Assembly (NCBI GenBank): GCA_903901905.1
Contig: CAIUSQ010000120.1
Coordinates: 1 to 17,446 of the forward strand
DNA length: 17,446 nt
Reading direction: 5' to 3'
Origin: an uncultured Actinomycetes bacterium
Lineage (GTDB): Bacteria > Actinomycetota > Actinomycetes > Nanopelagicales > Nanopelagicaceae
Made by a program: the position numbers and the translations under genes. Position 1 is the stretch's first letter. Every line of letters starts with the position of its first letter. The notes under the pieces are model-generated. The model was not told the origin of the DNA. It saw only the letters and a program-made list of their open reading frames with translations, and ran no database searches. Below, in pieces: positions 1 to 12,362 of the stretch.

Positions 1-1091
1 ACCGAATAAAAACAATTTTACAGATGGCAGCAGTTCTACAGTATTACTCCAGTCTTCCAGTAATCAAGGTGGGGCGTATGGCTGGGCAGTTTGCTAAGCC
101 TCGTTCCAGTGATTTTGAAACTCGAGGTGAAGTGACACTTCCTGCCTACCGCGGAGATGCTGTAAATGACATTGAATTTACGGAAGCTTCACGTACTCCG
201 GATCCTCAACGGTTAGTTCGTGTTTACAACACTTCTGCTGCAACTCTTAACTTGGTGCGGGCATTTACTCAAGGAGGATTTGCAGATCTTCGCCAAGTTC
301 ACGAGTGGAATAAAGGTTTTATTCGTGACTCAAAGGTTGGTGACCGGTATGAACAGATGGCAAATGAAATTGGTCGAGCGCTGTCATTTATGAAATCTGC
401 TGGAGTAGATCCAGAGAGTTTTAAATCAGTTGATTTCTTTTCAAGTCATGAAGCATTGATCATGGAGTATGAAAAGGCGTTGACTCGAATCGATTCACGC
501 ACGGGTAACGCATACGATGTTTCGGGCCATTTCATTTGGATTGGAGAGCGCACGCGTCAATTAGATGGTGCACATGTAGATTTCGCATCTAAGGTTCGAA
601 ATCCAATAGGAATCAAGTTGGGTCCAAAATCAACAGTCGAAGATGCCTTGGCACTGATTGATAAGTTAGATCCAAATCGCGAGCCAGGTCGAATAACATT
701 TATAACTCGCATGGGAGCGGGCAAGATTCGCGAAGTACTTCCTGCGCTAGTAGACGGGGTTACAAAATCTGGAGCGAAAGTTTTATGGGTCTGTGATCCC
801 ATGCATGGAAATACCTACGAAGCACCAACTGGATATAAGACTCGAAGCTTTGATGATGTTATGGATGAAGTAAAGGGATTTTTTGAAGTTCATAAAGCAC
901 TCGGAACTCATCCTGGTGGGGTTCATATTGAACTAACGGGAGATGATGTTACAGAGTGCGTCGGCGGGGGAGAAGAGATTTCACACGATGATTTAGCATC
1001 ACGCTATGAAACAGCCTGCGATCCTCGACTAAACCACTCCCAATCGTTAGAGCTTGCATTTTTAGTTGCTGAAATGTTGCGCGATCGCTAA
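1..1091 (+). CDS. aroG: Class II DAHP synthase, 3-deoxy-7-phosphoheptulonate synthase (5' end outside window)
   Basis: This enzyme condenses phosphoenolpyruvate and erythrose 4-phosphate, the first step of the shikimate pathway for aromatic amino acids. The visible part contains the class II (plant/actinobacterial) signatures KPRSSD, FIWIGERTRQLDGAH, ITRMGAGKIR, WVCDPMHGN and HPGGVHIELTGDDVTEC, which form the PEP, metal and phosphate sites. An ATG lies at base 24, but the frame is open to the left edge and bases 3-23 translate to RIKTILQ, which continues the family sequence just before this ATG. Family members have roughly 440-460 residues and only about 362 are visible here, so the gene is truncated by the window and base 24 is not the start. 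It ends with TAA at 1089-1091, nine bases before the next gene. In other actinobacteria aroG lies close to pknL, as it does here. Family assignment is very secure. Confidence 0.95.
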   Translation, partial: RIKTILQMAAVLQYYSSLPVIKVGRMAGQFAKPRSSDFETRGEVTLPAYRGDAVNDIEFTEASRTPDPQRLVRVYNTSAATLNLVRAFTQGGFADLRQVHEWNKGFIRDSKVGDRYEQMANEIGRALSFMKSAGVDPESFKSVDFFSSHEALIMEYEKALTRIDSRTGNAYDVSGHFIWIGERTRQLDGAHVDFASKVRNPIGIKLGPKSTVEDALALIDKLDPNREPGRITFITRMGAGKIREVLPALVDGVTKSGAKVLWVCDPMHGNTYEAPTGYKTRSFDDVMDEVKGFFEVHKALGTHPGGVHIELTGDDVTECVGGGEEISHDDLASRYETACDPRLNHSQSLELAFLVAEMLRDR

Positions 1092-1100
1092 CTTAGGCGC
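1089..1100 (+). promoter_or_regulatory. Predicted leaderless promoter -10 for ogt
   Basis: The hexamer TAACTT (1089-1094) lies exactly six bases before the GTG at 1101, so transcription would begin on the G of the start codon. Its TAA is the stop codon of the DAHP synthase gene. There is no Shine-Dalgarno sequence in the gap. It is supported by the same spacing at six other genes in the window; no -35 element was identified. Confidence 0.5.
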
Positions 1101-1574
1101 GTGCCTTTTCTAATTTCATCACACAAGACTCCAATTGGAGTTCTCAATCTTTTGGCTGATGATCAAATTCTGATAGGTGCCAATCTTTCAACAGTTGCAG
1201 CTCTTTCTGCTGGCAAGGATTCAAAGACTGTTAAATCAATTCCTGTAATCTCTGAATTGGTACAGGACTACTTTGACGGAGACTTAACGGCGCTCAATGG
1301 GATTCAGGTACGACAATCAGGGGCTTCTTTCTCTCAATCGGCTTGGAAAGCGATGCGAAGAATTACCGTTGGAAAGACCTGGACCTATTCTGAACTTGCA
1401 GCCAAAGCTGGATCACCAAATGCTGTGCGTGCGGCCGGAACGGCATGTGCAAACAATGCAATCATGTTGATCGTTCCATGTCATCGTATTGTTAAAACGG
1501 GTGGCGCTTTAGGAAATTACGCCTATGGAGTTGAAAAGAAGAGATGGCTTTTAAGCCACGAGGGTTTTCTTTAA
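1101..1574 (+). CDS. ogt: Methylated-DNA--protein-cysteine methyltransferase (O6-alkylguanine repair)
   Basis: This suicide DNA-repair protein transfers the alkyl group from O6-alkylguanine to its own cysteine. The 157-residue product has the usual two-part build: a short poorly conserved N-terminal domain (about 1-70) and a conserved C-terminal DNA-binding and active-site domain. The active site IVPCHRI places the acceptor cysteine at C127. The helix-turn-helix region carries the expected Y96 (TYSELA) and arginine finger R110 in NAVRAAGTACANN. The length suits Ogt/MGMT rather than the two-domain Ada protein. The GTG start is preferred because a TANNNT hexamer sits exactly six bases upstream and no Shine-Dalgarno sequence is present. 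The last 24 bases overlap the 3' end of the convergent threonine aldolase gene, so its final residues are encoded antisense to that gene. Confidence 0.92.
   Translation: MPFLISSHKTPIGVLNLLADDQILIGANLSTVAALSAGKDSKTVKSIPVISELVQDYFDGDLTALNGIQVRQSGASFSQSAWKAMRRITVGKTWTYSELAAKAGSPNAVRAAGTACANNAIMLIVPCHRIVKTGGALGNYAYGVEKKRWLLSHEGFL
1551..1574. other. Convergent coding overlap ogt / threonine aldolase
   Basis: The two stop regions cross by 24 bases. With the two 41-base overlaps, all three convergent pairs in the window share coding DNA at their 3' ends. Confidence 0.85.
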
Positions 1575-2585
1575 AATTTCAATAGCCTGTTGGCACTGGA
1601 CGTCGTCAAAATCTAAATGAGTAACAAGACGTACATATTTAGGGCCTAATGCACTGATTAATAATCCAGCTTCTTTGCATCGAACCGCTAATTCTGCAGC
1701 TGAAATAGATAGTGCAGTTAAATCAATTCCAACGATATTTGTTTCAACTGTTGATGCCTCGATCAAGGAGGAATCTATTTTTTCGATGGCTAGGGCTAAT
1801 TCTTTTGCACGTTCGTGATCCAGTGAAAGTCGGCTGATATTATTGTCCAAAGCAAAATGACCACCAGCTGCTATTAAACCAACTTGGCGCATCCCGCCTC
1901 CATAGCGTTTTCTCCACACACGTGCTTTAGTGATGATTTCTTTAGTTGAGAGCATAAGCGAGCCGATAGGTGCGCCTAAGCCTTTTGAAAGACAGATGCT
2001 AATTGTGTCAAAGTATTTGCCATATTCCAGAAGTGGAGTTCCAGATGCTATGTGCGCATTCCAAATTCTTGCCCCATCTAAATGAAGGGCTATTCCCATC
2101 TCATCTGCACCTTGACGGAGTTTTTTAATCTCTGAGATCGCCTGAATCGTTCCACCACCAAAATTATGAGTATTTTCTACCGCGATTGCAGTTGTTGACA
2201 CAAGATAAGGCCCACTATTTGGACGTGCAATATTAAGTGCATCCATAGCTACAAGGGATCCACTTTTAGATGGAAAAGTTCGAGTTGTAATTCCACTAAA
2301 AACTGCGGCAGCACCGAGTTCGGCACGCACAATGTGGCTATTTGTCTCGGCAATCAACTCTTCGCCTGGTGCAACCAACATTCGAATAGCTAGTTGGTTT
2401 GCAAGGGAGCCAGTGGGGGCAAATAGCGCAGCTTCTTTGCCAAACATTTCGGCGACGCGCTCTTCTAAGGAGTTAACCGTTGGATCATCCCCATAAACAT
2501 CATCACCAACTGGAGCCGCAGCAATTGCATCTCGCATACCTGCAGATGGTTTGGTTACGGTGTCACTTCTAAGGTCGATAGTCAT
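1551..2585 (-). CDS. ltaE: Low-specificity L-threonine aldolase (PLP enzyme)
   Basis: This PLP-dependent fold-type I enzyme cleaves L-threonine or L-allo-threonine to glycine and acetaldehyde, and may supply glycine. The 344-residue length is typical. The start IDLRSDTVTKPS is the family hallmark. The PLP-binding lysine is K201 in SICLSKGLGAPIGS, and the cofactor-binding aspartate is D170 in HLDGARIWN. The N-terminal half also has DDVYGDDPTVN and the FAPTGSLANQ phosphate-cup region. The ATG at 2583-2585 is preceded by TAACCT at exactly six bases, whose TAA is the stop of the upstream EamA gene, so it may have its own leaderless transcript besides readthrough from that gene. Its 3' end overlaps ogt by 24 bases on the opposite strand, leaving no room for a conventional terminator. 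Exact substrate stereospecificity cannot be read from sequence. Confidence 0.9.
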   Translation of the reverse strand: MTIDLRSDTVTKPSAGMRDAIAAAPVGDDVYGDDPTVNSLEERVAEMFGKEAALFAPTGSLANQLAIRMLVAPGEELIAETNSHIVRAELGAAAVFSGITTRTFPSKSGSLVAMDALNIARPNSGPYLVSTTAIAVENTHNFGGGTIQAISEIKKLRQGADEMGIALHLDGARIWNAHIASGTPLLEYGKYFDTISICLSKGLGAPIGSLMLSTKEIITKARVWRKRYGGGMRQVGLIAAGGHFALDNNISRLSLDHERAKELALAIEKIDSSLIEASTVETNIVGIDLTALSISAAELAVRCKEAGLLISALGPKYVRLVTHLDFDDVQCQQAIEILKKTLVA

Positions 2586-2597
2586 TTTGCAAGGTTA
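2586..2597 (-). promoter_or_regulatory. Predicted leaderless promoter -10 for threonine aldolase
   Basis: On the minus strand TAACCT (2597-2592) is followed by six bases and then the ATG at 2585. The hexamer begins with the TAA stop codon of the upstream exporter gene, the same stop/-10 merge seen before ogt. There is no Shine-Dalgarno sequence. Confidence 0.5.
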
Positions 2598-3458
2598 CTT
2601 CTCTTCCTTTAACACAATCAAATACATGGCTAGAAGTACTAAAAATCCGCCAAGGAGAACTTGAAGTGTCAATACCTCTCCGCCGAATATGACAGCAAAC
2701 AATGCAGCAAATACCACTTCCATTGTTAGGATCACAGCAACTTTTGTTGCGCTAATGTGAGCTTGAGACCAAGTCTGGATAATGAAAGCCACCGCTGTAG
2801 CAAAGACAGCTGTAAATACAACAACAGCCCAAACACCTCTATCCGGTGGTGGGGCATATCCCTCCGGGATGGAAGCGATACCCGCCATCAATGCGCAGAC
2901 TGTTAGTTGTACAACGGTCATCGCATATACATCTCGACCTGGTGACCATTTACTAAGTGCAATGATATGTGCGGCAAAAAATATCGCACTGATTAGAACT
3001 AGCATCTCACCGAATCCAACAGAAAAACCCTGTACCGACAACAAAGCTAGCCCTATTGTGGCTATGAAGATACAGAACCAGACAAATTTGCTAATTCGCT
3101 CTTTCAAAATTACAGATGCCAATAGCGGAGTAACCACAACGTAGAGGCCAGTAATAAAACCAGTTATTGCAGCACCAGTTCGTTCAAGTCCTAGAGTTTG
3201 AAAAATATATCCAAAGCCCAAAAAGATTCCAGCCAATCCCGCGCGCAGTAACAGTTCTTTATCGAACTTACGTAGGACCTGAGGTCTAATTGCGACCATC
3301 ACCAGAACTGCTAAAGAAAAACGAGTGAATAAAAAATTATTGACACTCTGTCGCTCAATTGCATCTTTCATTACGACAAATGCAAGACCCCAAGCCGCTG
3401 CAACCCCAAGTAGTGCCCATGGGGCAAGTTTTAACTGAAGTTGATGGCGAACAGTCAT
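2595..3458 (-). CDS. EamA/DMT-family inner-membrane transporter (exporter)
   Basis: This is a 287-residue, strongly hydrophobic protein with about ten predicted membrane segments arranged as two tandem EamA halves, the layout of drug/metabolite (RhaT/YdcZ-like) transporters. Visible family features are WGLAFVVMK in the first helix, FLFTRFSLAVLV in the second, TGAAITGFITGLYVVVTPLLA near the end of the first half, and ATKVAVILTMEVVFAALFAVIFGGE at the matching place in the second half. The family exports small metabolites such as amino acids, but the substrate is not predictable here. Its ATG overlaps the stop codon of the endonuclease IV gene (TAATG at 3460-3456), so translation is probably coupled. 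The stop is nine bases from the threonine aldolase start. Confidence 0.85.
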   Translation of the reverse strand: MTVRHQLQLKLAPWALLGVAAAWGLAFVVMKDAIERQSVNNFLFTRFSLAVLVMVAIRPQVLRKFDKELLLRAGLAGIFLGFGYIFQTLGLERTGAAITGFITGLYVVVTPLLASVILKERISKFVWFCIFIATIGLALLSVQGFSVGFGEMLVLISAIFFAAHIIALSKWSPGRDVYAMTVVQLTVCALMAGIASIPEGYAPPPDRGVWAVVVFTAVFATAVAFIIQTWSQAHISATKVAVILTMEVVFAALFAVIFGGEVLTLQVLLGGFLVLLAMYLIVLKEEK

Positions 3459-4321
3459 TATCCACGAAGCTTCTTGAGAAGTGCGACTTCTTTTTTGTGG
3501 GCTGGCTCTAAGCCTGGTGTTTCTAAAATGAGTGGTGCGTTTGCTACAGCAGGATGTTTAAGTAGTTCTTTGAAGGGATCTATTCCAATATGTCCATCAC
3601 CAATGTTTTGATGTCTATCTTTTAACGCTCCGCATATATCCATGGAATCATTTGCGTGGACAAGTTTAAATCGCTCAATTCCAGCGATTTCTACTAAAAG
3701 ATCTATAGTTGCAGTCATTCCACCTTTGGTCGCAATATCGTGGCCAGCTGCAAATACGTGGCAGGTATCAAGGCAAATACCAACTTTTGGGTGGTACTCA
3801 AGTGCCTTGAGGTACATCTCTAAATCATCTAATTTCTTAACTAATGATTGACCTTGTCCTGCAGTGGGTTCAAGTAATAGAAATGGTGATGAGTCATCTA
3901 ATGCATTCAGAATTGGCATCATGCCCTCATGAATCTGTTTCCATGCCTGATCAACGTGGGTGACATCAACTGCTGAGCCAGTGTGAATCACTACTCCAAG
4001 AGCACCGATTTCGTAGCCTCTTTTAAGTGAGTAAGCCGTTGAAGCTAATGAGTTTTCATAGGTTGCAACAGTTGGAGAACCTAAGTTGATAAGAAATGGT
4101 GCATGCACATAGGTTTCAAGATCCATTGCTGCTGCCTTGATTTTGAATGCTTCATCAAGTTCAGGTTTTGCTGCAGGCATTGCCCACATACGAGGACTTG
4201 AAGCAAAGACTTGAATCGCCTCTGCGCCAATCTCTTTGGCATAATCAATAGAACGCTTAGCCATTCCGCCGGTTGTAGGAGTATGCGCACCGATTCGCGG
4301 CTTATTAGTTGGCTTGGACAT
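3458..4321 (-). CDS. nfo: Endonuclease IV (AP endonuclease)
   Basis: This metal-dependent base-excision-repair enzyme cleaves DNA 5' to abasic sites. The 287-residue protein matches the usual length of about 280 and is a TIM-barrel of the AP endonuclease 2 family. Metal-ligand signatures are visible in order: YVHAPFLINLGSP, VIHTGS, LLLEPTAGQG, GICLDTCHVFAAGHD, LVHANDSM and RHQNIGDGHIG, ending with LILETPG. These cover the known trinuclear zinc ligands (His, Glu, Asp) of Nfo. The ATG at 4319-4321 lies four bases after the PknL-type kinase stop and has TACAGT exactly six bases upstream, inside the last codons of that kinase, with no Shine-Dalgarno sequence. It is followed with one-base overlap by the EamA transporter gene. 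The pairing with the exporter is probably positional rather than functional. Confidence 0.93.
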   Translation of the reverse strand: MSKPTNKPRIGAHTPTTGGMAKRSIDYAKEIGAEAIQVFASSPRMWAMPAAKPELDEAFKIKAAAMDLETYVHAPFLINLGSPTVATYENSLASTAYSLKRGYEIGALGVVIHTGSAVDVTHVDQAWKQIHEGMMPILNALDDSSPFLLLEPTAGQGQSLVKKLDDLEMYLKALEYHPKVGICLDTCHVFAAGHDIATKGGMTATIDLLVEIAGIERFKLVHANDSMDICGALKDRHQNIGDGHIGIDPFKELLKHPAVANAPLILETPGLEPAHKKEVALLKKLRG

Positions 4322-4333
4322 TCAACTACTGTA
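4322..4333 (-). promoter_or_regulatory. Predicted leaderless promoter -10 for nfo
   Basis: On the minus strand TACAGT (4333-4328) lies inside the final codons of the upstream kinase (GTA CAG TAG) and is followed by AGTTGA and the ATG of nfo. The spacing of six bases matches the other starts in the window, and no Shine-Dalgarno sequence is present. Readthrough from the kinase gene is the alternative. Confidence 0.45.
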
Positions 4334-6224
4334 CTTTAATCGTTACTGTGCTGCCACGTTCAACTTTTGTTTTCTTAACAGGAGAGACGGAGATAACATA
4401 CTTAACCTTATTTTTTCCTGTCGAAACTACTTTTGGCTTTAGACCAAGAGATTTAAGGAGATTTTGAGCTGCAACAGATTCCATTGCAATAATGGTTTCA
4501 GGAATAAACGTGTAGCGAGGCCCCTTTGAAATAACGATAGAAACTTTTGCTCCCTTATTTAGTGCCGAACCACCGGCGGGGCTTTGTGAAATGACTGCAA
4601 GCTCTAAGACATTCTCGCTGTATGCATATGTAGGTTGGACATCAAAACCAGCCTCAGTTAATTCATTAAGGGCTTGCTCTCCACTCTTACCGAGATAAGA
4701 GGCCAAGGCAATCTGCTCAATTCCTTTGGAGACAATTATTTCAATCTGCGTATCTCGCTTTACTGATGTTCCTGACTTCGGAAGAGTTTCAATCACAAAG
4801 CCTTTGGGGATTTCACTGCTAAAGACTTCTTTAACTGGGAGAATTTCAATTGGATACTTCAAGATGGCATTTTGGGCGGCCAAAACAGTTAATCCTGTTG
4901 TTTTTGGAATCGTGTATCGCTCTGGTCCCTTGGATACGATAAAACTAACACTGCCACTGGCCTGAACTTTTCCGCCTCCGGCTGGGTTTGATTCGATAAC
5001 TCTACCTTTGGCAATTTCTTCATCGAATCTGCTTTCGATCACGGTCGCTGTTAGTCCTAGCGGCTGCAGAATCGATACTGCTTCTTCATATGTTGCTCCG
5101 ACCGTTGATGGAACTACAACTTGCGAACCCGGACCAACCAAACTCCACCAACCTGCTACACCAACTGCGACTGCAAAAAATAGAGCAACCTTACGATTCC
5201 TACGAACACGTTTGCTTGCTCTCTTCTTCTTTTCTTCTTTTCGCCTAAGTTGACGAGTAGTCTCTTTTTTTTCTACTTCAACAGATGGTTCAGATTTAGT
5301 AGCTTCTTTCTTTTGGGTTTTCTCACGAATCGGCTCGACAGGCAGATCTAAACCAAGTGACATTTGATTTTTCTTCGGATCTAAATCAACTTGAATTTGC
5401 GCGAGTTCATCTAAAAACTCAGATGCAGTGCGAGGTCGATTATCTGGGTTCTTTGAAGTTGCTCTAGCAATTAAGTCATCCAAACCCTGCGGAATCTCTT
5501 TGCGCTTACTGCGAAGACGAGGAACTTCTTCATTAACGTGCATATAAGCAATCTGTATAGGGGAGTCGGCGGTGAAAGGTTTATCACCAATCAACATTTC
5601 GTAGGCAACAATTCCAGCCGCATAGACATCACTTCGAGAATCAGCGATTCCCCTTTGGACCTGTTCTGGAGAGAGATAGGAGACGCTTCCTAAAATCACA
5701 CTGGATTCAGCTGTCATTGTTGATCCAATAATTTCGCCTCTTGCCAAACCAAAATCAGCAACTTTAACTCTGCCTTCATTCGAGATCATTATGTTTTCCG
5801 GCTTTACATCACGGTGAACGATTCCTAATGCATGCGCTGCAGATAGTGCACTTAAAATCGGAGTTAAGTAGTTCATTGCATCCTTGATTTCGAATCTTCC
5901 ACGTTCATTCAAATACTCTCGTAATGTATGGCCTTCTATAAGCTCCATCACTAAGAAGACAGCGGGAACTCCATTTTGGTTCCAGCCTTGATCTTGTACA
6001 GCCACGATGTTGGGATGTGAAAGCGCCGCCGCCGCTTTTGCTTCGCGAATAAAACGTGAAACATAGGCATCATCTTGTGCCAGATGTGAGTGCATAATCT
6101 TTACTGCAACTTTACGATCTAAGCGAGTATCGAGCGCCTCATAAATTGCGGCCATCCCGCCATTGGCTACCTGACGCAATAATTGATAGCGACCGTCAAT
6201 GAGTTCACCGGTCAGATCAGACAT
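4326..6224 (-). CDS. pknL: Membrane Ser/Thr protein kinase with four PASTA domains (PknL/PknB type)
   Basis: This receptor-like kinase couples cell-wall precursors or muropeptides outside the cell to phosphorylation inside. The 632-residue layout is: kinase domain (about 12-280) with glycine loop VANGGMAAIYEA, ATP lysine K42, catalytic loop HRDVKPEN (D139) and DFG (D157); a Lys/Glu-rich juxtamembrane stretch (about 295-345) ending in RRNRK; one membrane helix (about 346-364); then four extracellular PASTA repeats of about 65 residues, most ending in a VSKGPE-like motif. It has no ftsW/pbpA neighbours, as pknB usually has. It lies between aroG and a polyprenyl synthase next to metF, which is the neighbourhood of pknL in mycobacteria and corynebacteria, so PknL orthology is preferred. 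That is an inference from synteny. The ATG follows TAAAAT by exactly six bases. Confidence 0.88.
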   Translation of the reverse strand: MSDLTGELIDGRYQLLRQVANGGMAAIYEALDTRLDRKVAVKIMHSHLAQDDAYVSRFIREAKAAAALSHPNIVAVQDQGWNQNGVPAVFLVMELIEGHTLREYLNERGRFEIKDAMNYLTPILSALSAAHALGIVHRDVKPENIMISNEGRVKVADFGLARGEIIGSTMTAESSVILGSVSYLSPEQVQRGIADSRSDVYAAGIVAYEMLIGDKPFTADSPIQIAYMHVNEEVPRLRSKRKEIPQGLDDLIARATSKNPDNRPRTASEFLDELAQIQVDLDPKKNQMSLGLDLPVEPIREKTQKKEATKSEPSVEVEKKETTRQLRRKEEKKKRASKRVRRNRKVALFFAVAVGVAGWWSLVGPGSQVVVPSTVGATYEEAVSILQPLGLTATVIESRFDEEIAKGRVIESNPAGGGKVQASGSVSFIVSKGPERYTIPKTTGLTVLAAQNAILKYPIEILPVKEVFSSEIPKGFVIETLPKSGTSVKRDTQIEIIVSKGIEQIALASYLGKSGEQALNELTEAGFDVQPTYAYSENVLELAVISQSPAGGSALNKGAKVSIVISKGPRYTFIPETIIAMESVAAQNLLKSLGLKPKVVSTGKNKVKYVISVSPVKKTKVERGSTVTIKVQ

Positions 6225-6236
6225 GTGGCGATTTTA
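6225..6236 (-). promoter_or_regulatory. Predicted leaderless promoter -10 for the PASTA kinase
   Basis: On the minus strand TAAAAT (6236-6231), close to the sigma-70 consensus, is followed by CGCCAC and then the ATG at 6224. This is the best hexamer among the leaderless candidates. No convincing -35 element is seen, and no Shine-Dalgarno sequence lies before the ATG. Confidence 0.6.
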
Positions 6237-6237
6237 T

Positions 6238-6257: not shown

Positions 6258-6279
6258 TCATCTGGCGCGCCCAAAAAGG

Positions 6280-6768
6280 TTATGAAGTAAGTTTCACATC
6301 ACAATTTTCGGCTGTTTTATCCAACTTAAAGTGCGCATCTTGGTAACTCTGCCAAATGAGCATTAAATCTCTAAGGTGGCGTCCATCTCGATCTAACACG
6401 CGTTGGAGTCCGATTTCTGGTGCGACTTCTATCCAGTAAGTCTTTGCACCTGCATCTCGGACTATCTTTTGAGCGGCACCAACGCCCTCAAGAATGAGTA
6501 CCTCTGCTGGTGGAATTAACTCTGCCTCACCAAATTCCATCATGGCCCAATTGAATCTTTTTATGTAGAAATTCTTGCCGGCTTTATGAGATTGAACAAT
6601 TTCTGAAAGCTTCAAAGTAAGCTCATCGGATAAAGCATCTTCCCAGCCGTTATAGAGATCGTCCATGTGAATAACTTGCACCGTGGAAGATTGTTGATAC
6701 TCACTTTGAAGCTTTCCAGCAAGTGTAGTTTTCCCCGATCCCGCAGGACCATCAATTGCTAAGAGCAC
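6280..6768 (-). CDS. P-loop nucleoside/uridine-kinase-like protein in the TPP-riboswitch unit
   Basis: This is a small kinase of the uridine-kinase/AAA-like P-loop group that is widespread in actinobacteria. From the GTG start it has 162 residues: Walker A GPAGSGKT (residues 7-14), a conserved HMDDLYNGW with D36/D37 where uridine kinases hold the substrate-activating acid, LILEGVG (E94) after the third strand, and a lid-like VLDRDGRHLRD. The frame stays open to TTG codons at 6789 and 6792, but GTG at 6768 starts directly before the first strand and is preferred. It overlaps the transporter gene by 17 bases (41 if TTG 6792 is used), so the two are translated together behind the TPP riboswitch. 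The natural substrate of this group is unknown to me. The context suggests phosphorylation of thiamine or a precursor after uptake, but no residue here proves it. Confidence 0.75.
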   Translation of the reverse strand: MLLAIDGPAGSGKTTLAGKLQSEYQQSSTVQVIHMDDLYNGWEDALSDELTLKLSEIVQSHKAGKNFYIKRFNWAMMEFGEAELIPPAEVLILEGVGAAQKIVRDAGAKTYWIEVAPEIGLQRVLDRDGRHLRDLMLIWQSYQDAHFKLDKTAENCDVKLTS

Positions 6769-7327
6769 GTTGCCAACGTCGCCAACCAACAACGGCTACA
6801 GCTATAAACACTACATATAGCACCGCAGTGAACCAGTATCCCAAGAGCAAGTACTGCGTGCTTCCGACGATATTGATGATGAGCCAAAGAAACCATGCTT
6901 CAAATTTTTCGTAAATCATCATTACTTGGGCAAATAAACTGCCAACAAGAATGAAGGCATCTGACCACGTTGCTGCAGCGCCAATGCCAGATAGCACCGG
7001 AGATAAAACTGCAACTGATGCTATGACTCCAACGCAGAGATAAAGACGTTTGCGAGTCGACAACACTCCTGGCTTAGCGCCCTTAGGTCCCCATCCGCGC
7101 CAGCCATAAATGGCGGCAACTATAAAAATTATTTGAAGCGCTGCACTTGCAAAGAGTTCAACTTGATAGAAAAAGACCGCATACAAGAGACTTCCAGCGG
7201 CCCACCATGGCCATGTAATTCTCTTTCCGGTAGTGCCCAGCCAAACACCAATGAAGGAGGTAATTGCCGCAATGAATTCTAAAGCCGAGACTTCATATTC
7301 CCAGGCAGTAAATAAAATAGTTGACAT
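6752..7327 (-). CDS. pnuT: PnuC-family vitamin transporter, predicted thiamine transporter PnuT
   Basis: This is an integral membrane facilitator of the PnuC/SWEET-like fold with about seven helices and 191 residues. Visible PnuC features are TWPWWAAGSLLYAVFFYQ, the LQIIFIVAAIYGWRGWG helix with its conserved Gln and YGW-x-x-W, and the repeat of the pattern near the C-terminus (LLLGYWFTAVLY, VVGWRRW). PnuC proteins are often labelled nicotinamide riboside transporters, but the TPP riboswitch directly upstream points to thiamine, the PnuT subgroup. These carriers rely on intracellular phosphorylation to trap substrate, which fits the overlapping kinase gene. The ATG at 7325-7327 is preferred over the in-frame ATG at 7345, because GGAAAGGA lies at proper distance before 7327 and the upstream ATG would lie inside the riboswitch. 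Confidence 0.82.
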   Translation of the reverse strand: MSTILFTAWEYEVSALEFIAAITSFIGVWLGTTGKRITWPWWAAGSLLYAVFFYQVELFASAALQIIFIVAAIYGWRGWGPKGAKPGVLSTRKRLYLCVGVIASVAVLSPVLSGIGAAATWSDAFILVGSLFAQVMMIYEKFEAWFLWLIINIVGSTQYLLLGYWFTAVLYVVFIAVAVVGWRRWQRALSN

Positions 7328-7334
7328 TGTGATT

Positions 7335-7418
7335 TTCCTTTCCATATCCGCATTACCGGATCGGTCTAACGGTCGGTCTGAATTTCAGACCCTCTCAGCC
7401 GTGGTGGCTCCCGTGTTC
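7335..7418 (-). promoter_or_regulatory. TPP riboswitch (THI element) controlling pnuT
   Basis: The minus strand carries the aptamer core in order: CACGGGAGCC, GGCTGAGAGGG, CCGACCGTTAGACC, GATCCGGTAATGCGGAT and GGAAAGG. P2 forms from AGCC/GGCT around ACCAC. P3 is GGTCTG/CAGACC (plus strand 7375-7391), and P5 is ATCCG/CGGAT around GTAATG. This matches the actinobacterial THI pattern, with CCGATC where CTGATC is usual. The 3' end contains the Shine-Dalgarno sequence of pnuT, so TPP binding would most simply block translation initiation; there is no separate terminator hairpin or U-tract. A clear P1 stem was not found. Confidence 0.88.
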
Positions 7419-7426
7419 ATAGAGTA
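7415..7426 (-). promoter_or_regulatory. Predicted -10 for the TPP riboswitch-pnuT transcript
   Basis: On the minus strand TACTCT (7426-7421) is followed by six bases (ATGAAC), placing +1 at about 7414, the first base of ACGGGAGCC, essentially at the 5' edge of the aptamer. The TA at 7425-7426 is shared with the opposite-strand -10 of crtYc. No good -35 element was found. Confidence 0.45.
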
Positions 7427-7430
7427 GCGT
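7421..7430. promoter_or_regulatory. Symmetric bidirectional -10 (ANNNTANNNT) between pnuT and crtYc
   Basis: The ten bases AGAGTAGCGT read as TAGCGT on plus and TACTCT on minus, two TANNNT hexamers sharing one TA. Predicted starts are 7437 (plus, the G of the crtYc GTG) and 7414 (minus), 23 bases apart. The same geometry recurs at 11492-11501. RNA polymerase could engage only one direction at a time. Confidence 0.5.
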
Positions 7431-7436
7431 TATCTC
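7425..7436 (+). promoter_or_regulatory. Predicted leaderless promoter -10 for crtYc
   Basis: TAGCGT (7425-7430) is followed by TATCTC and the GTG at 7437. The stretch TAGCGTTATCTCGTG closely resembles the crtE start region TACCGTTATCACGTG (two mismatches in fifteen bases), which suggests the two carotenoid promoters are related or similarly constrained. There is no Shine-Dalgarno sequence. Confidence 0.55.
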
Positions 7437-7763
7437 GTGCTCAAGTTCGGTTATCTTGCCATGATTGCATTCACAGTATGTGGCTCCATTTGGCTGGAGT
7501 TTGTACTCAAAGTTAAAGTCTTAAAAAGATATAAGAGGGCAATCAAAGCAATTCTTCCAGTCTCATTAATCTTTATTGCCTGGGATGCCTATGCAATCCA
7601 TCAAGGGCATTGGAGTTTTGATAACAATCAGATTCTGGGGATCTTTGGCCCCTTTGGTATTCCACTAGAGGAATACTTATTTTTCACCGTAGTTCCCTTG
7701 GCTGCAATTTTAACGATTGAGGCAGTACGAACTGTTAAAAAACATTGGCAGGTTTACAAATGA
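7437..7763 (+). CDS. crtYc: Lycopene cyclase subunit CrtYc
   Basis: This is the first half of the heterodimeric, membrane-bound lycopene beta-cyclase of Gram-positive bacteria, which converts psi-ends of lycopene to beta-ionone rings. The 108-residue protein has about three membrane helices and the conserved acidic signature IPLEEYLFF, with D50 in FIAWDAYAIHQGHW ahead of it, both typical of the CrtYc/CarR/CrtY-fusion family. The GTG start is chosen because TAGCGT lies exactly six bases upstream and no Shine-Dalgarno sequence exists. It overlaps crtYd by an ATGA. It faces away from pnuT with a shared promoter, and it is separate from the crtE-crtI-crtB unit, so cyclization may be controlled apart from lycopene synthesis. 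Whether the enzyme makes one or two rings cannot be told from sequence. Confidence 0.9.
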   Translation: MLKFGYLAMIAFTVCGSIWLEFVLKVKVLKRYKRAIKAILPVSLIFIAWDAYAIHQGHWSFDNNQILGIFGPFGIPLEEYLFFTVVPLAAILTIEAVRTVKKHWQVYK

Positions 7764-8062
7764 CCTATACCCAATTAGCGATCTCTGCTGTAGTAATTGT
7801 CATAATCCTTGATCTCTATGTTATAAAAACTTGCTTACTCAAACGCAAAGTTTTCTGGACTTCGTATGCAATCATTGTAGGTTTTCAACTTCTAACAAAC
7901 TGGTGGTTAACGTCTCGAAACATCGTCATCTATAGCCCTGATGCAATTCTGGGCCTGCGAATAGCATCTGCTCCAGTTGAGGACTTACTCTTTGGTTTTG
8001 CGCTAGTTGTAGGCGTATTAATTAATTGGATAAAGCTAGGCGCTTCAGATAAGCAGCACTAG
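7760..8062 (+). CDS. crtYd: Lycopene cyclase subunit CrtYd
   Basis: This is the partner of CrtYc; both are needed for cyclization. The 100-residue protein has about three membrane helices and the signature SAPVEDLLFG, the second-half counterpart of PLEEYLFF, preceded by SPDAILGLRI. The ATG at 7760-7762 is preferred: it forms ATGA with the crtYc stop, the usual coupling in this window. A TTG at 7745 in the same frame would only add five residues that overlap crtYc. The final 41 bases overlap the 3' end of crtB on the opposite strand, so the C-terminal WIKLGASDKQH region is encoded antisense to the crtB tail. Confidence 0.9.
   Translation: MTYTQLAISAVVIVIILDLYVIKTCLLKRKVFWTSYAIIVGFQLLTNWWLTSRNIVIYSPDAILGLRIASAPVEDLLFGFALVVGVLINWIKLGASDKQH
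8022..8062. other. Convergent coding overlap crtYd / crtB
   Basis: The 3' ends of crtYd (plus, TAG at 8060-8062) and crtB (minus, TAA at 8024-8022) overlap by 41 bases. Both transcripts must extend through the other's coding end, so no intrinsic terminator fits between them. Confidence 0.85.
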
Positions 8063-8924
8063 CAACACGTAATCTTCTTCCAGCTGATGTTTTAGCACGT
8101 TTGTTGAAAACATCGTAATTGATTTTTTCTACCTCTTCGACAATTCCACAGTACAAAGTACTTGCCGCTTGGATACATGGACGACTAGAGGGCTCCAATA
8201 GTTTGATTCCTGGTGCAGCCTGGTCCTGTAATCTCTTAACTCGAGCAATTTGAAATTTAAGGGCTTCCACTATTTCGGGAGTAAGGACTCTTGCTTCTAG
8301 CATTTTGCGGTCTACGCCAAATTGTTGTAACTCTTTTTTAGGTAGATAGACGCGTGATCTATCTAGATCTTCGCTTACGTCCCGAATAAAATTAGCTAAT
8401 TGAAATGCAATACCTAATGTTTTTGCCGATTCATAGGCATCAGCGTGCAAGGGACCTAGAATCGGAACCATTTGTAGCCCAATAACGGCTGCCGATCCAT
8501 AGACATACTCCATTAAATCTTCATAGGTCTCATACTCTTGAACAGTTAAATCCATCTCCATTGAGTGTAAAAATGCTTCAAAGTATTCATGTGGAATATC
8601 AAATCGCGAGACGGTATCTATTAATGCTCGACCGACAGCATCCTGGCTATTACCTTTCTTTAAATCTGATAAAACTTTGCTGCCCCACGTGTTTAACTCT
8701 TTGGCTTTTTCTTGAACAGATAACTGTGATGCCAGATCATCGACAATTTCATCGGCATAGCGAGCAAAGCCATAGAGCGCATGAACAAAAGGTCTCTTGG
8801 CTTTAGGCAGTAAAAGAGTTGCCAGGAAGTAAGTTTTTCCATGTAAAGCATTGAGTCTTTTGCACTCTGCATATGATGCACGCAGATCGGGATCTGTGAT
8901 TCCGGCAGCGGTTAACTCATCCAC
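8022..8924 (-). CDS. crtB: Phytoene synthase
   Basis: This enzyme joins two GGPP molecules head to head to make 15-cis-phytoene, the committed carotenoid step. The 300-residue length is typical of trans-isoprenyl diphosphate synthases of the squalene/phytoene group. The two magnesium-binding acid motifs are DEIVDD (58-63) and RDVSED (181-186, in QLANFIRDVSED), followed by DRSRVYLP; YGFARYADE and EMDLTVQEYETYEDLMEYVYGSA segments are also family-typical. The GTG start at 8924 immediately follows the crtI stop codon (TAA then GTG), indicating translational coupling in the order crtE-crtI-crtB. Its stop lies inside crtYd on the opposite strand (41-base overlap), so antisense effects between the two carotenoid units are possible. 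Confidence 0.95.
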   Translation of the reverse strand: MDELTAAGITDPDLRASYAECKRLNALHGKTYFLATLLLPKAKRPFVHALYGFARYADEIVDDLASQLSVQEKAKELNTWGSKVLSDLKKGNSQDAVGRALIDTVSRFDIPHEYFEAFLHSMEMDLTVQEYETYEDLMEYVYGSAAVIGLQMVPILGPLHADAYESAKTLGIAFQLANFIRDVSEDLDRSRVYLPKKELQQFGVDRKMLEARVLTPEIVEALKFQIARVKRLQDQAAPGIKLLEPSSRPCIQAASTLYCGIVEEVEKINYDVFNKRAKTSAGRRLRVASAAYLKRLALSN

Positions 8925-10409
8925 TTATTTAACCGGACCCACAATGCGTTCAGCTGCTAATCGACCTGAAATCAAGACCATCGGAACACCAACACCTGGT
9001 TGTGTTCCAGATCCGGCAAATACAACGTTTTCAATTCCAGCGGCAATGTTGCGAGGCCTAAATGGACCCGTCTGAAAAAAAGTATGGGCACTTGCAAAAG
9101 GAGCGCCTGCTTCCATTCCTTGAGACTGCCAATCCAATGGAGTTGTTAGAACTTCAGTTTCAATGGCATCACCAAAGCCTGTGTATCCACGCTTTTCCAT
9201 AGTTTCAACCATGTGATCGCGGTATGGCTTGGCCTGCTTCTTCCAATCTATGTTGGCAGTCAAATTGGGTGTTGGAAATAGAACGTAATAAGAATGTTTT
9301 CCAGGGGGAGCCAAAGTTGGATCATCCTTTGAAGGCAACGTCACCAAAAGACTTGGATCACTCATCAAAACCTTTTTCTTGATGAGCTCATCAAATATTC
9401 CATCCCATTGATGACCAAAATGAATGTTGTGGTGGGCAGCAAATTCGTATTCTCGTGAAGAGCCAACCAGCATCGTTACGCAAGAAGGAGAATAGTTAAG
9501 ACGCTTTACTGAAAGAGGAGTCTTTCCCAATAAATCTCGCCAAGCTACAGGTAGATCGGGATTTAAAATTACCGCATCACATTCAATTCTTTGACCATCT
9601 TCTGTGATCACAGCCTTTGCGCGCGAGTTAACTACATCAATCTTTGAAACGGTAGTGCTGTATTTGAACACGACACCATGTTTCTCAGCTGCTGCTGCCA
9701 TCGCACGCGGAACAGCGTGCATACCGCCCTTAGGGAAGAAAACTCCGTTTACTGAGTCCATATATGCAATAACGGCATAAATCGCTAAGGCTTGTTGAGG
9801 ACTAACACCTGCATACATTGCTTGAAATGAATACACGCGTTGAAGCCTGGGATCTTTCATAAACTGATTAACTCTAGGTGACAGGCGTCTAAAACCACCT
9901 AATGCAATGAGGCGAGCAAGATTTGGAGTTAAGAGATTAAGTGGAGAGTCGATGTTTCTATCGATGAAATCATTCATCTCGTACTTGTATAACTTAGTTA
10001 CGAAATCTACATATTTTGCATAACCTGCAGCTTCTTCAGGGCTAATTTTTTCTGCAATCTCTGCTTCCATCTGAGCAGTATTTGCATGGACATCTAACTG
10101 CGATCCATCTGCATAAAAAGCACGGTAAAGCGGCGAGACCGGCATGAGTTCAAGCCAATCCTTCATATCTTCACCGACACTACTAAAAGCATCTTGAATT
10201 AGTGATGGCATTGTTAAAACTGAGGGACCCGTATCAAAAGAGTAACCTTCTTTTTTCAGTAAACCATTACGTCCGCCGGGAACTGATTCTCGTTCTATCA
10301 CTGTGACTTTACGACCGGCACCTGCCAAACGTAAAGCAGCACTGAGTCCGGCCAATCCAGCACCGACTACGACTACATGATCCGTAGGCCCTTTAACACG
10401 TGCTGGCAT
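8925..10409 (-). CDS. crtI: Phytoene desaturase (CrtI type)
   Basis: This FAD-dependent desaturase/isomerase converts phytoene to lycopene by successive desaturations. The 494-residue length is typical. The N-terminal FAD-binding Rossmann motif VVVVGAGLAGLSAALRLAG is followed by VIERESVPGGRNG and FDTGPSVLTMP. The C-terminal carotenoid-dehydrogenase signature is GIENVVFAGSGTQPGVGVPMVLISGR. Its ATG overlaps the crtE stop (TAATG at 10411-10407), and AAGAGGAG, a strong Shine-Dalgarno sequence, sits just upstream, in contrast to the first gene crtE which has none. Placement between crtE and crtB with tight coupling supports a role in core C40 synthesis. Substrate range (number of desaturation steps) is inferred from pathway logic: the CrtYcd cyclase needs lycopene or neurosporene ends. 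Confidence 0.93.
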   Translation of the reverse strand: MPARVKGPTDHVVVVGAGLAGLSAALRLAGAGRKVTVIERESVPGGRNGLLKKEGYSFDTGPSVLTMPSLIQDAFSSVGEDMKDWLELMPVSPLYRAFYADGSQLDVHANTAQMEAEIAEKISPEEAAGYAKYVDFVTKLYKYEMNDFIDRNIDSPLNLLTPNLARLIALGGFRRLSPRVNQFMKDPRLQRVYSFQAMYAGVSPQQALAIYAVIAYMDSVNGVFFPKGGMHAVPRAMAAAAEKHGVVFKYSTTVSKIDVVNSRAKAVITEDGQRIECDAVILNPDLPVAWRDLLGKTPLSVKRLNYSPSCVTMLVGSSREYEFAAHHNIHFGHQWDGIFDELIKKKVLMSDPSLLVTLPSKDDPTLAPPGKHSYYVLFPTPNLTANIDWKKQAKPYRDHMVETMEKRGYTGFGDAIETEVLTTPLDWQSQGMEAGAPFASAHTFFQTGPFRPRNIAAGIENVVFAGSGTQPGVGVPMVLISGRLAAERIVGPVK

Positions 10410-11485
10410 TAATTACTCCTCTTTGTGGCGATATGAGCAAGCTCCGCTAAAAGTTGTTGACCTTCTTCTGAAAATTCTGGTGAGGCAATTGCCGCAATGG
10501 ATTTTTCAGTCAATTCTTCAATCAACTTCTCTAACTTATCTTTTGCTCCAGAGTCCAAGATTATCTGTTGAAGGGCGGTTATGCCCTCTGAATTTAGATC
10601 TGGTTGTCCAAAGTATTTTTCAAAGGCCTGGGACTGTGATGGAGTTTGAGTATCACGGGACAGGGCGATCAAAACGGTTTTTTTGCCTTCTCGCAAGTCA
10701 TCTCCGGTTGGCTTTCCAGTTACCGAAGCATCTCCATAAACACCTAATAAGTCGTCACGAAGTTGAAATGCTTCTCCAAGAGGTAGTCCATATGCAGAGA
10801 GTGCAGAGATTCTCTTTTGATTTATTGAATCAGCCATCGCCGCCCCAAGGTGTAGAGGGCGCTCTATTGTGTATTTTCCAGATTTGTATCGCGCAATCTT
10901 CATTGAACGATCAAAACTTGAACTTTTTTGTGTCTGCTCGTGAATATCTAAAAACTGCCCTGCCATTAGTTCAACGCGCATTTCATTGTAGTAAGGAATA
11001 GTTCTTGTAAATTGATCAGCGGTTAATCCAGCTGAGTTAAGCATTTGATCAGACCATACAAGTGCCAAATCTCCAAGTAGAACTGCTGCCGATAAACCAT
11101 ACTGTGGTGCAAAACCTTCAAGTCGATCTTGCACATGAATAGATTCAAAGTGACGATGAATGGATGGTTTTCCACGGCGCGTATCAGATGCATCCATTAA
11201 GTCATCATGTATCAATGCACACGCTTGCAGAAGTTCTAAACTTGCTATCGCTCTTATAGTTGATCTCTCAAGAATTCCACCGGCTGCAATAAATCCTGCA
11301 TATGCAAAAAGAGGGCGAAGACGTTTACCCCCTTCTAGTAAAAATGATGTTAAAGAGTTACAAACGAGCGTTAAGTCTTGTGAGATATCTTGCAAATAGG
11401 CACCCTCACGGCTTAGAAATATTCCAAGCTCTTCTTCAACGGATGTACGAACGGCTAGCAGGCTCGTCTTTGGCACTGAATTCAC
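10409..11485 (-). CDS. crtE: Geranylgeranyl/polyprenyl diphosphate synthase, first gene of crtEIB
   Basis: This prenyl synthase builds GGPP from IPP and allylic diphosphates for phytoene synthase. The 358-residue protein is a trans-prenyltransferase: GGKRLRP (52-58), first Asp-rich motif DDLMDASDTRRGKP (D94, D95, D98), the KSGKYTIERP region, and second motif QLRDDLLGVYGD (D244, D245). The sequence style is that of the actinobacterial IdsA/GrcC group, and the gene lies divergently next to metF as does the idsA2-type synthase in mycobacteria. It is coupled to crtI, so GGPP supply for carotenoids is its main predicted job, though it may also serve other C20 products. The GTG start is chosen because TACCGT lies exactly six bases upstream, with no Shine-Dalgarno sequence. 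Confidence 0.9.
   Translation of the reverse strand: MNSVPKTSLLAVRTSVEEELGIFLSREGAYLQDISQDLTLVCNSLTSFLLEGGKRLRPLFAYAGFIAAGGILERSTIRAIASLELLQACALIHDDLMDASDTRRGKPSIHRHFESIHVQDRLEGFAPQYGLSAAVLLGDLALVWSDQMLNSAGLTADQFTRTIPYYNEMRVELMAGQFLDIHEQTQKSSSFDRSMKIARYKSGKYTIERPLHLGAAMADSINQKRISALSAYGLPLGEAFQLRDDLLGVYGDASVTGKPTGDDLREGKKTVLIALSRDTQTPSQSQAFEKYFGQPDLNSEGITALQQIILDSGAKDKLEKLIEELTEKSIAAIASPEFSEEGQQLLAELAHIATKRSN
10412..10424 (-). promoter_or_regulatory. Shine-Dalgarno sequence of crtI
   Basis: On the minus strand AGAGGAG precedes the crtI ATG by about seven bases, inside the final codons of crtE. It is the clearest ribosome binding site in the window and shows that internal genes use SD-led initiation while the first genes of units appear leaderless. 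Confidence 0.7.
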
Positions 11486-11497
11486 GTGATAACGGTA
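11486..11497 (-). promoter_or_regulatory. Predicted leaderless promoter -10 for the crtEIB unit
   Basis: On the minus strand TACCGT (11497-11492) is followed by TATCAC and the GTG of crtE at 11485. It nearly matches the crtYc start region. The TA is shared with the metF -10 on the other strand. Confidence 0.55.
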
Positions 11498-11501
11498 CCC
11501 T
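11492..11501. promoter_or_regulatory. Symmetric bidirectional -10 (ANNNTANNNT) between crtE and metF
   Basis: The ten bases ACGGTACCCT contain TACCCT on plus and TACCGT on minus, sharing the central TA within a GGTACC palindrome. The whole intergenic region is 22 bases. Predicted starts are 11508 and 11485, 23 bases apart, exactly as at 7421-7430. Confidence 0.55.
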
Positions 11502-11507
11502 CACTCA
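11496..11507 (+). promoter_or_regulatory. Predicted leaderless promoter -10 for metF
   Basis: TACCCT (11496-11501) is followed by CACTCA and the GTG at 11508, the same six-base spacing as at the other unit-leading genes. There is no Shine-Dalgarno sequence. Confidence 0.5.
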
Positions 11508-12362
11508 GTGGTAGTTGGCACATCCTATTCATTTGAGTTCTTTCCTCCCAAAGACATAGAGGGGGAAGGAAGATTGTGGCATGCAATAGAAGGGCTCAAA
11601 TCTATTGCTCCAGATTTTGTATCCGTAACATATGGAGCTGGTGGGTCAACTAGAGATCGATCTATTCGTATTGCTCGTGAAATCACAAGCCGCACCGGCA
11701 TTCCAACAGTGGCGCACATTACTTGCGTTGGATCAACGCGCGATGAATTACTGGAGGTTTTAAACAGTTACAAAGATGCCAAAATTACAAGCATTCTTGC
11801 ACTTCGCGGTGATCCAGTTGGCGGACCATTGGCACCATGGCAACCAACAGAAAACGGATTTACTCATGCTGACGAACTTGTTGAATTGGCAAAAGAGTGT
11901 GGAGGATTCAAAATAGGTGTTGCCGCTTTCCCAGATGGACATCCAAGTTCTGGGGGAGATTTTGAAAAAGATATTGACGTGCTCATTAGAAAAGAAGAAC
12001 TGGGTGCAACGTTTGCAACAACTCAATTCTTTTTTGATATGAAGGCTTATAGGAATCTCGTGGAACGCCTTGCAAAACGTGGCTCTGCGCTCACAGTCAT
12101 TCCTGGAATTTTGCCAGTTACTAATGTGAAGCTTCTGCATCGAATGGCAGACCTTGGGGGAACGCCTATTCCAGTTCATATTGCCAAAGCCTTCGCAGAG
12201 GTTGAGTCTGATTCCCAGGCTGTTCGTGATCTAGGTGTAGAAATTGCTACAAAACTATGCAAAGAACTCTTAGAAGCTGGTGCTCCTGGATTACATTTTT
12301 ACACTATGAATAGCTCAACTGCGACAGTTGAGATTTATCGAAGGATCAATAATGTTAACTAA
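11508..12362 (+). CDS. metF: 5,10-Methylenetetrahydrofolate reductase
   Basis: This FAD-dependent TIM-barrel enzyme reduces 5,10-methylene-THF to 5-methyl-THF, the methyl donor for methionine synthesis. The 284-residue length fits bacterial MetF. Signatures include SFEFFPPK at the N-terminus (with the catalytic glutamate), VSVTYGAGGSTRDR, a HITCVGSTRDEL strand, ILALRGDPVGG (the FAD-binding ALRGDP motif), IGVAAFPDGHP, ATTQFFFD and the C-terminal GLHFYTMN. It is divergent from crtE with a 22-base shared promoter region, an arrangement also found around idsA2/metF in mycobacteria. The following phosphatidyltransferase gene starts inside its 3' end, so the two are co-transcribed. Confidence 0.95.
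   Translation: MVVGTSYSFEFFPPKDIEGEGRLWHAIEGLKSIAPDFVSVTYGAGGSTRDRSIRIAREITSRTGIPTVAHITCVGSTRDELLEVLNSYKDAKITSILALRGDPVGGPLAPWQPTENGFTHADELVELAKECGGFKIGVAAFPDGHPSSGGDFEKDIDVLIRKEELGATFATTQFFFDMKAYRNLVERLAKRGSALTVIPGILPVTNVKLLHRMADLGGTPIPVHIAKAFAEVESDSQAVRDLGVEIATKLCKELLEAGAPGLHFYTMNSSTATVEIYRRINNVN
12340..12345 (+). promoter_or_regulatory. Shine-Dalgarno sequence deciding the start of the CDP-alcohol phosphatidyltransferase
   Basis: GAAGGA lies about seven bases before the ATG at 12352, within the last codons of metF. It supports this ATG over the longer open frame that begins at 12328. Confidence 0.6.

What the first reader, a model, noticed from the sequence alone, without database searches (positions are those of the whole stretch)
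1089..11510. Unit-leading genes share TANNNT exactly six bases before the start codon, suggesting leaderless mRNAs as the default
Seen directly: ogt (TAACTT-AGGCGC-GTG), threonine aldolase (TAACCT-TGCAAA-ATG), nfo (TACAGT-AGTTGA-ATG), pknL (TAAAAT-CGCCAC-ATG), crtYc (TAGCGT-TATCTC-GTG), crtE (TACCGT-TATCAC-GTG), metF (TACCCT-CACTCA-GTG). That is seven of the nine starts not overlapping or directly abutting an upstream gene (cruF and cruG are the exceptions). A given site would match T-A-N3-T by chance roughly once in 45-64. None has a Shine-Dalgarno sequence, while coupled genes such as crtI and the phosphatidyltransferase do. A -10 ending at -7 puts +1 on the first base of the start codon. 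Leaderless transcripts are common in Actinobacteria; a near-universal fixed geometry would be a strong and practical start-site rule for this lineage.
Basis: partly seen in the sequence, partly recalled or inferred. Interest (0 to 1): 0.72.

Follow-up and report, generated by a model that had tools for sequence, protein, structure and literature searches.

The report
Leaderless promoters at actinobacterial start codons
Many genes of this freshwater actinobacterial lineage have a promoter box placed so that the RNA should begin at the start codon itself, a known actinobacterial habit that is common here but not universal; in some tightly packed genes the stop codon of the gene before even forms part of that box.

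Summary
All seven TANNNT-N6-start strings are exactly as reported. In about 1.57 Mb of two same-genus genomes, with starts called without upstream information, TANNNT peaks at spacing 6 (214 of 1499 starts) and 7 (95 more), against about 1% per control spacing. These 309 starts are never TTG (others 56 of 1190), favour a pyrimidine at -1 (249 of 309; others 523 of 1190) and lack Shine-Dalgarno enrichment. Relatives mostly keep the boxes. Leaderless mRNA is therefore very likely, though no transcript ends were available. "Near-universal" is wrong: about 20% of genes and 38-47% of divergent leaders, background-corrected. The rule was published for Actinobacteria in 2011 (PMC3160421). Apparently new, from narrow searches: co-directional gaps of exactly 9 nt are over-represented (33 against 11.25), 21 of the 33 because the upstream TAA/TAG stop supplies T-12 A-11 of the next gene's box, as for ogt and ltaE. 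Also, crtE and metF have divergent boxes sharing one TA; the pattern is in 56 of 57 related loci.

The parts
1089..1103 (+). ogt: -10 box TAACTT (1089-1094), six bases, start GTG (1101-1103); the box's TAA is the stop codon of the upstream DAHP synthase gene (1089-1091)
   Evidence: in the 30 relatives examined TANNNT at spacing 6 with gap 9 (16) or spacing 7 with gap 10 (14), all with a TAA stop
2583..2597 (-). ltaE (threonine aldolase-like): -10 box TAACCT (2597-2592), start ATG (2585-2583); the box's TAA is the stop of the EamA gene (2597-2595)
   Evidence: TANNNT at 6 or 7 in 21 of 30 relatives; 20 of 20 with a TAA/TAG upstream stop have the fused box, 8 of 9 with a TGA stop have no TANNNT, one locus lacked the upstream gene
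4319..4333 (-). nfo: -10 box TACAGT (4333-4328), start ATG (4321-4319); the box's last T is the first base of pknL's TAG stop (4328-4326)
   Evidence: spacing 6 in 29 of 29 relatives that could be read (one cut short), gap 4 in all 29, stops TAG 13, TAA 13, TGA 3
6222..6236 (-). pknL: -10 box TAAAAT (6236-6231), start ATG (6224-6222)
   Evidence: TAAAAT in 30 of 30 relatives, spacing 6 in 12 and 7 in 18
7425..7439 (+). crtYc: -10 box TAGCGT (7425-7430), start GTG (7437-7439)
   Evidence: box at the aligned start in 15 of 30 relatives (14 at spacing 6, one at 7); the other 15, 63-74% identical, lack it
11483..11497 (-). crtE: -10 box TACCGT (11497-11492), start GTG (11485-11483)
   Evidence: 57 of 57 distinct loci with metF at least 54% identical have TANNNT at 6-9 before some crtE start candidate; wide start window
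11492..11501 (.). ACGGTACCCT: two divergent -10 boxes sharing the central TA (11496-11497); 22 bp between the two start codons, predicted start sites 23 bp apart
   Evidence: ANNNTANNNT in 56 of 57 such loci, against 14 of 38 more distant actinobacterial loci
11496..11510 (+). metF: -10 box TACCCT (11496-11501), start GTG (11508-11510)
   Evidence: TANNNT at 6-9 before a metF start candidate in 52 of 57; the other five (L079, L080, L082, L083, L087) keep the box core, and metF begins further down behind an AAAGGA- or GGAGG-like sequence (read by eye)

Best explanation
The shared TANNNT is the -10 element of the housekeeping (sigma-A type) promoter. It ends at -7, so RNA polymerase starts on the A or G of the ATG/GTG start codon and the mRNA has no leader; the ribosome then starts on the 5'-terminal AUG/GUG without a Shine-Dalgarno. 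In this Nanopelagicaceae-type (acI) lineage it serves about a fifth of all genes and somewhat under half of the genes that open a divergent unit; of the other divergent leaders some have a Shine-Dalgarno and many show neither signal. The box packs tightly into gene borders: an upstream TAA/TAG stop can be its T-12 A-11 (gap 9, or gap 10 with spacing 7), an upstream stop's first T can be its T-7 (gap 4), and two divergent boxes can share one TA (crtE/metF). Shown: sequence geometry, statistics, conservation. Inferred: the sigma factor, the exact +1, and leaderless translation.
For: Seven exact matches. G016 (800 kb, 786 starts) and G001 (765 kb, 713 starts), starts called without upstream information: spacing 6 in 106 and 108, spacing 7 in 57 and 38, against means of 7.1 and 8.1 per spacing from 13 to 40; E. 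coli K-12 control (100 kb) 0 of 81 at 6 and at 7. Starts with no nearby alternative show the same peak (61 of 358 and 61 of 311 at six). TTG 0 of 309 against 56 of 1190 (Fisher 4e-6); -1 pyrimidine 249 of 309 against 523 of 1190 (4e-32); SD 4-mer 46 of 309 (15%, background 17%) against 504 of 1190 (42%, background 13%). Relatives, 30 loci examined per gene: pknL 30 of 30, nfo 29 of 29, ogt 30 of 30, ltaE 21 of 30, crtYc 15 of 30. crtE/metF pattern in 56 of 57 loci; in five of these metF's start lies further down behind a Shine-Dalgarno-like sequence while the box stays, as a promoter would. Mapped ends elsewhere agree: S. lividans average hexamer-to-start-site distance 6.3 nt and 97.1% purine at leaderless +1 (PMC8079986, passages); C. 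glutamicum 33% leaderless, all AUG or GUG (PMC3890552, passages).
Against: No transcript ends for this lineage were found. The window's own genome is not held, so the statistics come from two relatives. My gene finder placed 44 of 66 E. coli starts exactly and missed short genes, in this window crtYc, crtYd and pnuC, so fractions are approximate. A raw whole-genome count of TANNNT-N6-ATG shows no clear excess over its reversed control in the 37 same-genus genomes (ratio at most about 1.15, my sums); I take this to be chance matches inside genes, since only gene-aware counts show the peak. The -35 signal is weak (TTG 13 and 9 at -36 and -35 against 4.9 expected, n 214). Half of the crtYc relatives and 9 of 30 ltaE relatives lack the box.
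Confidence: 0.88

Rival explanations
1. The boxes are real -10 elements, but transcription mostly starts a few bases off the start codon or from other promoters upstream, so most of these mRNAs carry a short or long leader.
For: Spacing 7 and some 8 occur; five metF relatives have the same box with a Shine-Dalgarno-like start further down, so the box does not force leaderlessness; upstream promoters cannot be excluded.
Against: The absence of TTG and the -1 pyrimidine point to +1 on the start codon; the 6-7 peak is too sharp for a variable leader.
Confidence: 0.08
2. For ogt, ltaE and nfo (4-9 nt after a co-directional stop) the TANNNT is a by-product of stop codons and coding sequence; these genes are translated by coupling or reinitiation on a polycistronic mRNA.
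For: A TAA/TAG stop supplies two of the three fixed bases for free; the gaps are typical of operons.
Against: Gap 9 is over-represented (33 against a neighbour mean of 11.25, P 1e-7); T at the decisive sixth base in 21 of 33 against 43 of 258 at other gaps; TAG is preferred in fused boxes (13 of 21 against 78 of 345); ogt keeps it in 30 of 30 relatives with the gap moving from 9 to 10 as the spacing moves from 6 to 7, and 8 of 9 TGA-stop ltaE relatives lack any TANNNT.
Confidence: 0.12
3. TANNNT at this position is a translation signal read by the ribosome rather than a promoter element.
For: Fixed distance to the start codon; no Shine-Dalgarno enrichment.
Against: In five metF relatives the box stays while the start lies further down; genes within 10 nt of a co-directional gene show less of it, spacing 6 plus 7 in 32 of 340 (G016) and 26 of 259 (G001) against 72 of 168 and 66 of 184 divergent leaders; the consensus is that of mapped -10 elements (PMC3898074, PMC8079986, passages).
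Confidence: 0.02
4. Chance plus selective reading by the first-stage reader.
For: The window is richer than the genome average: 7 of 18 starts against 14.3% (P 0.009).
Against: P about 3e-10 for 7 of 18 at 1% background; genome-wide peak.
Confidence: 0.01

Closest known systems
TA-led (leaderless) genes of Actinobacteria, Zheng et al. 2011 (PMC3160421; abstract and passages seen)
   Same: TANNNT at around 12 bp before the start codon, read as the -10 box of a leaderless mRNA; [quoted passage not shown]
   Different: I did not check whether this lineage was among its genomes; sharing with stop codons is not in the passages I saw
Mapped leaderless transcriptomes: M. tuberculosis (PMC3898074), C. 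glutamicum (PMC3890552), S. lividans (PMC8079986); passages seen
   Same: -10 TANNNT shortly before +1, +1 on the start codon; a quarter of genes, 33% and 17% of transcripts leaderless respectively
   Different: Those are mapped 5' ends; here only sequence. The genomes sampled here have 44-46% G+C
Leaderless-aware gene-start prediction (GeneMarkS-2, as mentioned in the StartLink paper PMC9581028; passages seen)
   Different: I did not run it and do not know how it does on this lineage
Bidirectional bacterial promoters with shared -10 elements (PMC10268837 and PMC12825309, passages seen; Warman et al. 2021 recalled, not held)
   Same: crtE/metF start sites would be 23 bp apart, inside the published 7-25 bp definition, with overlapping -10 elements
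   Different: The usual distance is 18 bp with reciprocal -7/-11 pairing; here the boxes overlap by TA alone and both products would be leaderless mRNAs

Membership tests
Leaderless (TA-led) actinobacterial genes | TANNNT with first T about 12 bp upstream of the start, as a positional peak above chance | tested here: met
Leaderless (TA-led) actinobacterial genes | Start codon ATG or GTG (purine +1), no TTG | tested here: met
   0 of 309 TTG against 56 of 1190
Leaderless (TA-led) actinobacterial genes | No Shine-Dalgarno beyond background | tested here: met
   46 of 309 (15%) against a background of 17% at -60 to -45; other starts 504 of 1190
Leaderless (TA-led) actinobacterial genes | 5' end of the mRNA at the start codon | not testable with these tools
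   no RNA data; searches found no paper on leaderless genes in this lineage
   100 of 352 divergent leaders at six; 38-47% at six or seven after start-agnostic correction
Bidirectional promoter (crtE/metF) | Divergent start sites 7-25 bp apart with overlapping -10 elements | tested here: inconclusive
   geometry met on sequence (23 bp, shared TA); start sites not mapped
Stop-codon/-10 fusion (proposed here) | Excess of co-directional gaps that place a stop in the box, with selection on the remaining box bases | tested here: met
   gap 9: 33 against 11.25; T at base six 21 of 33 against 43 of 258; gap 4: TA five bases before the stop 9 of 26 against 21 of 698

The most novel reading that the evidence does not exclude
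In this streamlined lineage stop codons are recurrently used twice: the upstream gene's TAA/TAG is the T-12 A-11 of the next gene's -10 box (gap exactly 9, or 10 with spacing 7), or its first T is T-7 (gap 4). Stop-codon choice (TAA/TAG against TGA) is then under promoter selection, and an apparent operon joint is also an independent leaderless transcription start. Divergent genes do the like by sharing one TA between two boxes.
Probability: 0.65. Interest if true: 0.55.

Novelty: new member of a known kind. Interest (0 to 1): 0.38.

Why it matters
Gene-start calls and operon predictions in this freshwater lineage should allow for leaderless starts, about a fifth of genes. The stop/-10 sharing gives a concrete, testable link between stop-codon usage, gap length and promoter position, and suggests that gaps of 9-10 nt can be transcription-unit borders rather than operon joints.

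Tried and rejected
Raw pattern counting of TANNNT-N6-ATG in 60 whole genomes: no clear excess in the 37 same-genus genomes; in the 23 genomes of other families 12 show at least 1.5-fold excess over the control by my sums, so the feature is wider than this genus but uneven. The 96-100-kb samples of G038, G049 and G055 (72, 77 and 67 genes) gave 2, 4 and 2 starts at spacing 6, above their own backgrounds of 0.1-0.3% but too few to rate; G039 gave 8 of 83. With start-agnostic counting the E. coli sample gave 1 and 3 of 81 at spacings 6 and 7, below its own background.

A TGA version of the fusion (stop TGA as an extended -10) was suggested by ltaE relatives but not found among gap-12 joints of G016 and G001 (0 of 11 have TGA). 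A preferred divergent gap of exactly 22 bp was looked for and not found: 2 of 92 pairs in G001, 0 of 84 in G016; those two and a 23-bp pair in G001 also share the TA, by my reading of the printed sequences. No Rfam match in the window at gathering thresholds, so no known riboswitch family for pnuC. Searches (GeneMarkS-2; divergent promoters) gave nothing useful. A first run of the alignment of relatives failed for a wrong program option and was repeated.
Full report
What the window is. The metF search of named genomes gives mostly unnamed freshwater-type actinobacterial records first, with IMCC25003 and IMCC26103, a 'Candidatus Nanopelagicaceae bacterium' (L096), a 'Candidatus Nanopelagicales bacterium' (L106) and a record marked acI (L100) among them (that the IMCC strains are acI is recalled). 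The window's own genome is not held; G001 is nearest, with 41% of its sampled words.

Checking the observation. All seven box-spacer-start strings are exact. Three of the seven genes start 4-9 nt after a co-directional stop, two of those boxes borrow the upstream TAA, and pnuC, a divergent leader with a Shine-Dalgarno, was not counted. So the window figure is 4 of 5 leaders that are divergent or more than 50 nt from the gene before, or 7 of 18 starts. At 1% background 7 of 18 has P about 3e-10; against the genome rate of 14.3% it has P 0.009.

Genome-wide test. I wrote a gene finder that chooses starts from coding score and start-codon type only. On 100 kb of E. coli K-12 it found 66 of the 68 annotated genes that I listed and 44 of those 66 starts exactly; in the window it missed crtYc, crtYd and pnuC. 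It is fair but imperfect, and it uses nothing upstream. In G016 (800 kb, 786 starts) TANNNT stands at spacing 6 in 106 and at 7 in 57; in G001 (765 kb, 713 starts) in 108 and 38; spacings 13-40 average 7.1 and 8.1. Divergent leaders: 51 and 21 of 168, 49 and 17 of 184. E. coli gives 0 of 81 at both. Letting any in-frame start within 60 nt count and correcting by control spacings gives 21.7% and 19.5% of all genes, and 47.0% and 38.0% of divergent leaders. Among the 1168 starts without TANNNT at 6-8, hexamers [ACG]ANNNT at spacing 6 number 120 against 61 expected, so strict TANNNT undercounts somewhat. Internal in-frame ATG/GTG codons show no peak at six (0.25% and 0.44%). Divergent leaders by signal: G016 72 with the box (11 of them also with an SD 4-mer), 38 with SD only, 58 with neither, of 168; G001 66 (11), 46, 72, of 184.

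Why leaderless. If +1 is the start codon's first base, TTG should be shunned and -1 should be a pyrimidine. Both hold: TTG 0 of 309 against 56 of 1190, and -1 C/T 249 of 309 against 523 of 1190. SD 4-mers are at background in TANNNT starts (15% against 17% far upstream) and enriched in the others (42% against 13%). The average box in the first samples (59 and 49 sites) favours G-14, T-12 A-11 G, G/A, C, T-7, T-6. This agrees with mapped start sites in other Actinobacteria (passages).

Conservation. For ogt, ltaE, nfo, pknL and crtYc I searched 81 same-genus genomes each (76, 75, 77, 80 and 65 had a match) and examined only the 30 loci returned per gene. pknL keeps TAAAAT in 30 of 30, 12 at six and 18 at seven; nfo 29 of 29 (one locus cut short); ogt 30 of 30; ltaE 21 of 30; crtYc 15 of 30, the others (63-74% identical) lacking it. 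For crtE/metF I tested 110 loci: 9 lacked one gene, 5 were duplicates, one was not divergent; 57 distinct loci have metF at least 54% identical and 38 less. Of the 57, 56 hold ANNNTANNNT, 49 the stricter NNGGTANCCT, 57 have TANNNT at 6-9 before a crtE start candidate and 52 before a metF one; the window for start candidates was wide, so a few of these hits are probably chance (L008 and L023, for example). The other five (L079, L080, L082, L083, L087) keep the core while metF begins further down behind an AAAGGA- or GGAGG-like sequence (read by eye). That separates the box from translation and marks it as a promoter element. Of the 38 more distant loci 29 have such a box at metF, 23 at crtE and 23 at both, but only 14 hold ANNNTANNNT.

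Stop codons inside the box. Among 1142 co-directional joints the gap of exactly 9 nt occurs 33 times against a mean of 11.25 at gaps 5-8 and 11-14 (P 1e-7); counted without trusting my starts, 41 against 19.4 (P 1e-5). 21 of the 33 are TANNNT-6 by way of the upstream TAA/TAG. The third fixed base, not supplied by the stop, is T in 21 of 33, against 43 of 258 at other gaps (P 4e-8). TAG, which fits the favoured TAG box, is the stop in 13 of 21 fused joints against 78 of 345 at other gaps from 0 to 30 (P 2e-4). G016 adds seven of eleven gap-10 joints with spacing 7; G001 has no gap-10 joint, so that count rests on one genome. The second register, gap 4 with the stop's T as T-7, has TA in place in 9 of 26 against 21 of 698 (P 2e-7). 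The orthologues behave as the fusion predicts: ogt has TAA in 30 of 30, with gap 9 or 10 matching spacing 6 or 7; ltaE with TAA/TAG is fused in 20 of 20, with TGA 8 of 9 have no TANNNT; nfo, where only the T is used, has TAG 13, TAA 13 and TGA 3. In all, 28 such gap-9/10 joints of 1142 were counted, about 2.5%. I found no paper on this, but the two searches were narrow and cover open-licence papers only; no outgroup with enough genes was available, so I cannot say whether it is special to this lineage.

Literature. Zheng et al. 2011 state the TANNNT rule and more than twenty percent leaderless genes for Actinobacteria (PMC3160421, abstract and passages). The StartLink paper mentions GeneMarkS-2 as handling such genomes (PMC9581028, passages). 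No paper in the library holds 'leaderless' together with a word beginning 'Nanopelagic' or with 'acI' and 'freshwater'; the 20 listed of 57 papers had no 'leaderless'.

Verdict. The stop-codon sharing is the part worth following.

Noticed in passing
window 7406-7414: GGCTCCCGT, 23-31 bases before crtYc's start, appears (by eye, in the 36 bases printed) in crtYc relatives that keep the promoter (for example L338, L342, L343, L345-L347) and not in those that lack it; possibly an operator.
   Followed up: no
G016 and G001 samples; similar sequences upstream of ltaE in L245, L249, L264, L265, L272: TGAGANNNT at spacing 6 occurs before 11 starts lacking TANNNT, against about 0.2 expected: probably an extended -10 in which the T at -12 is replaced.
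   Followed up: partly
window 11485-11508; loci with metF under 54% identity: A divergent polyprenyl synthetase-metF pair is kept in other Actinobacteria; 23 of 38 such loci have leaderless-type boxes before start candidates of both genes.
   Followed up: partly
L071, L074, L077, L084, L109 (titles): Contigs that resemble this lineage carry the title 'Bifidobacterium breve', which looks like mislabelled metagenome records.
   Followed up: no
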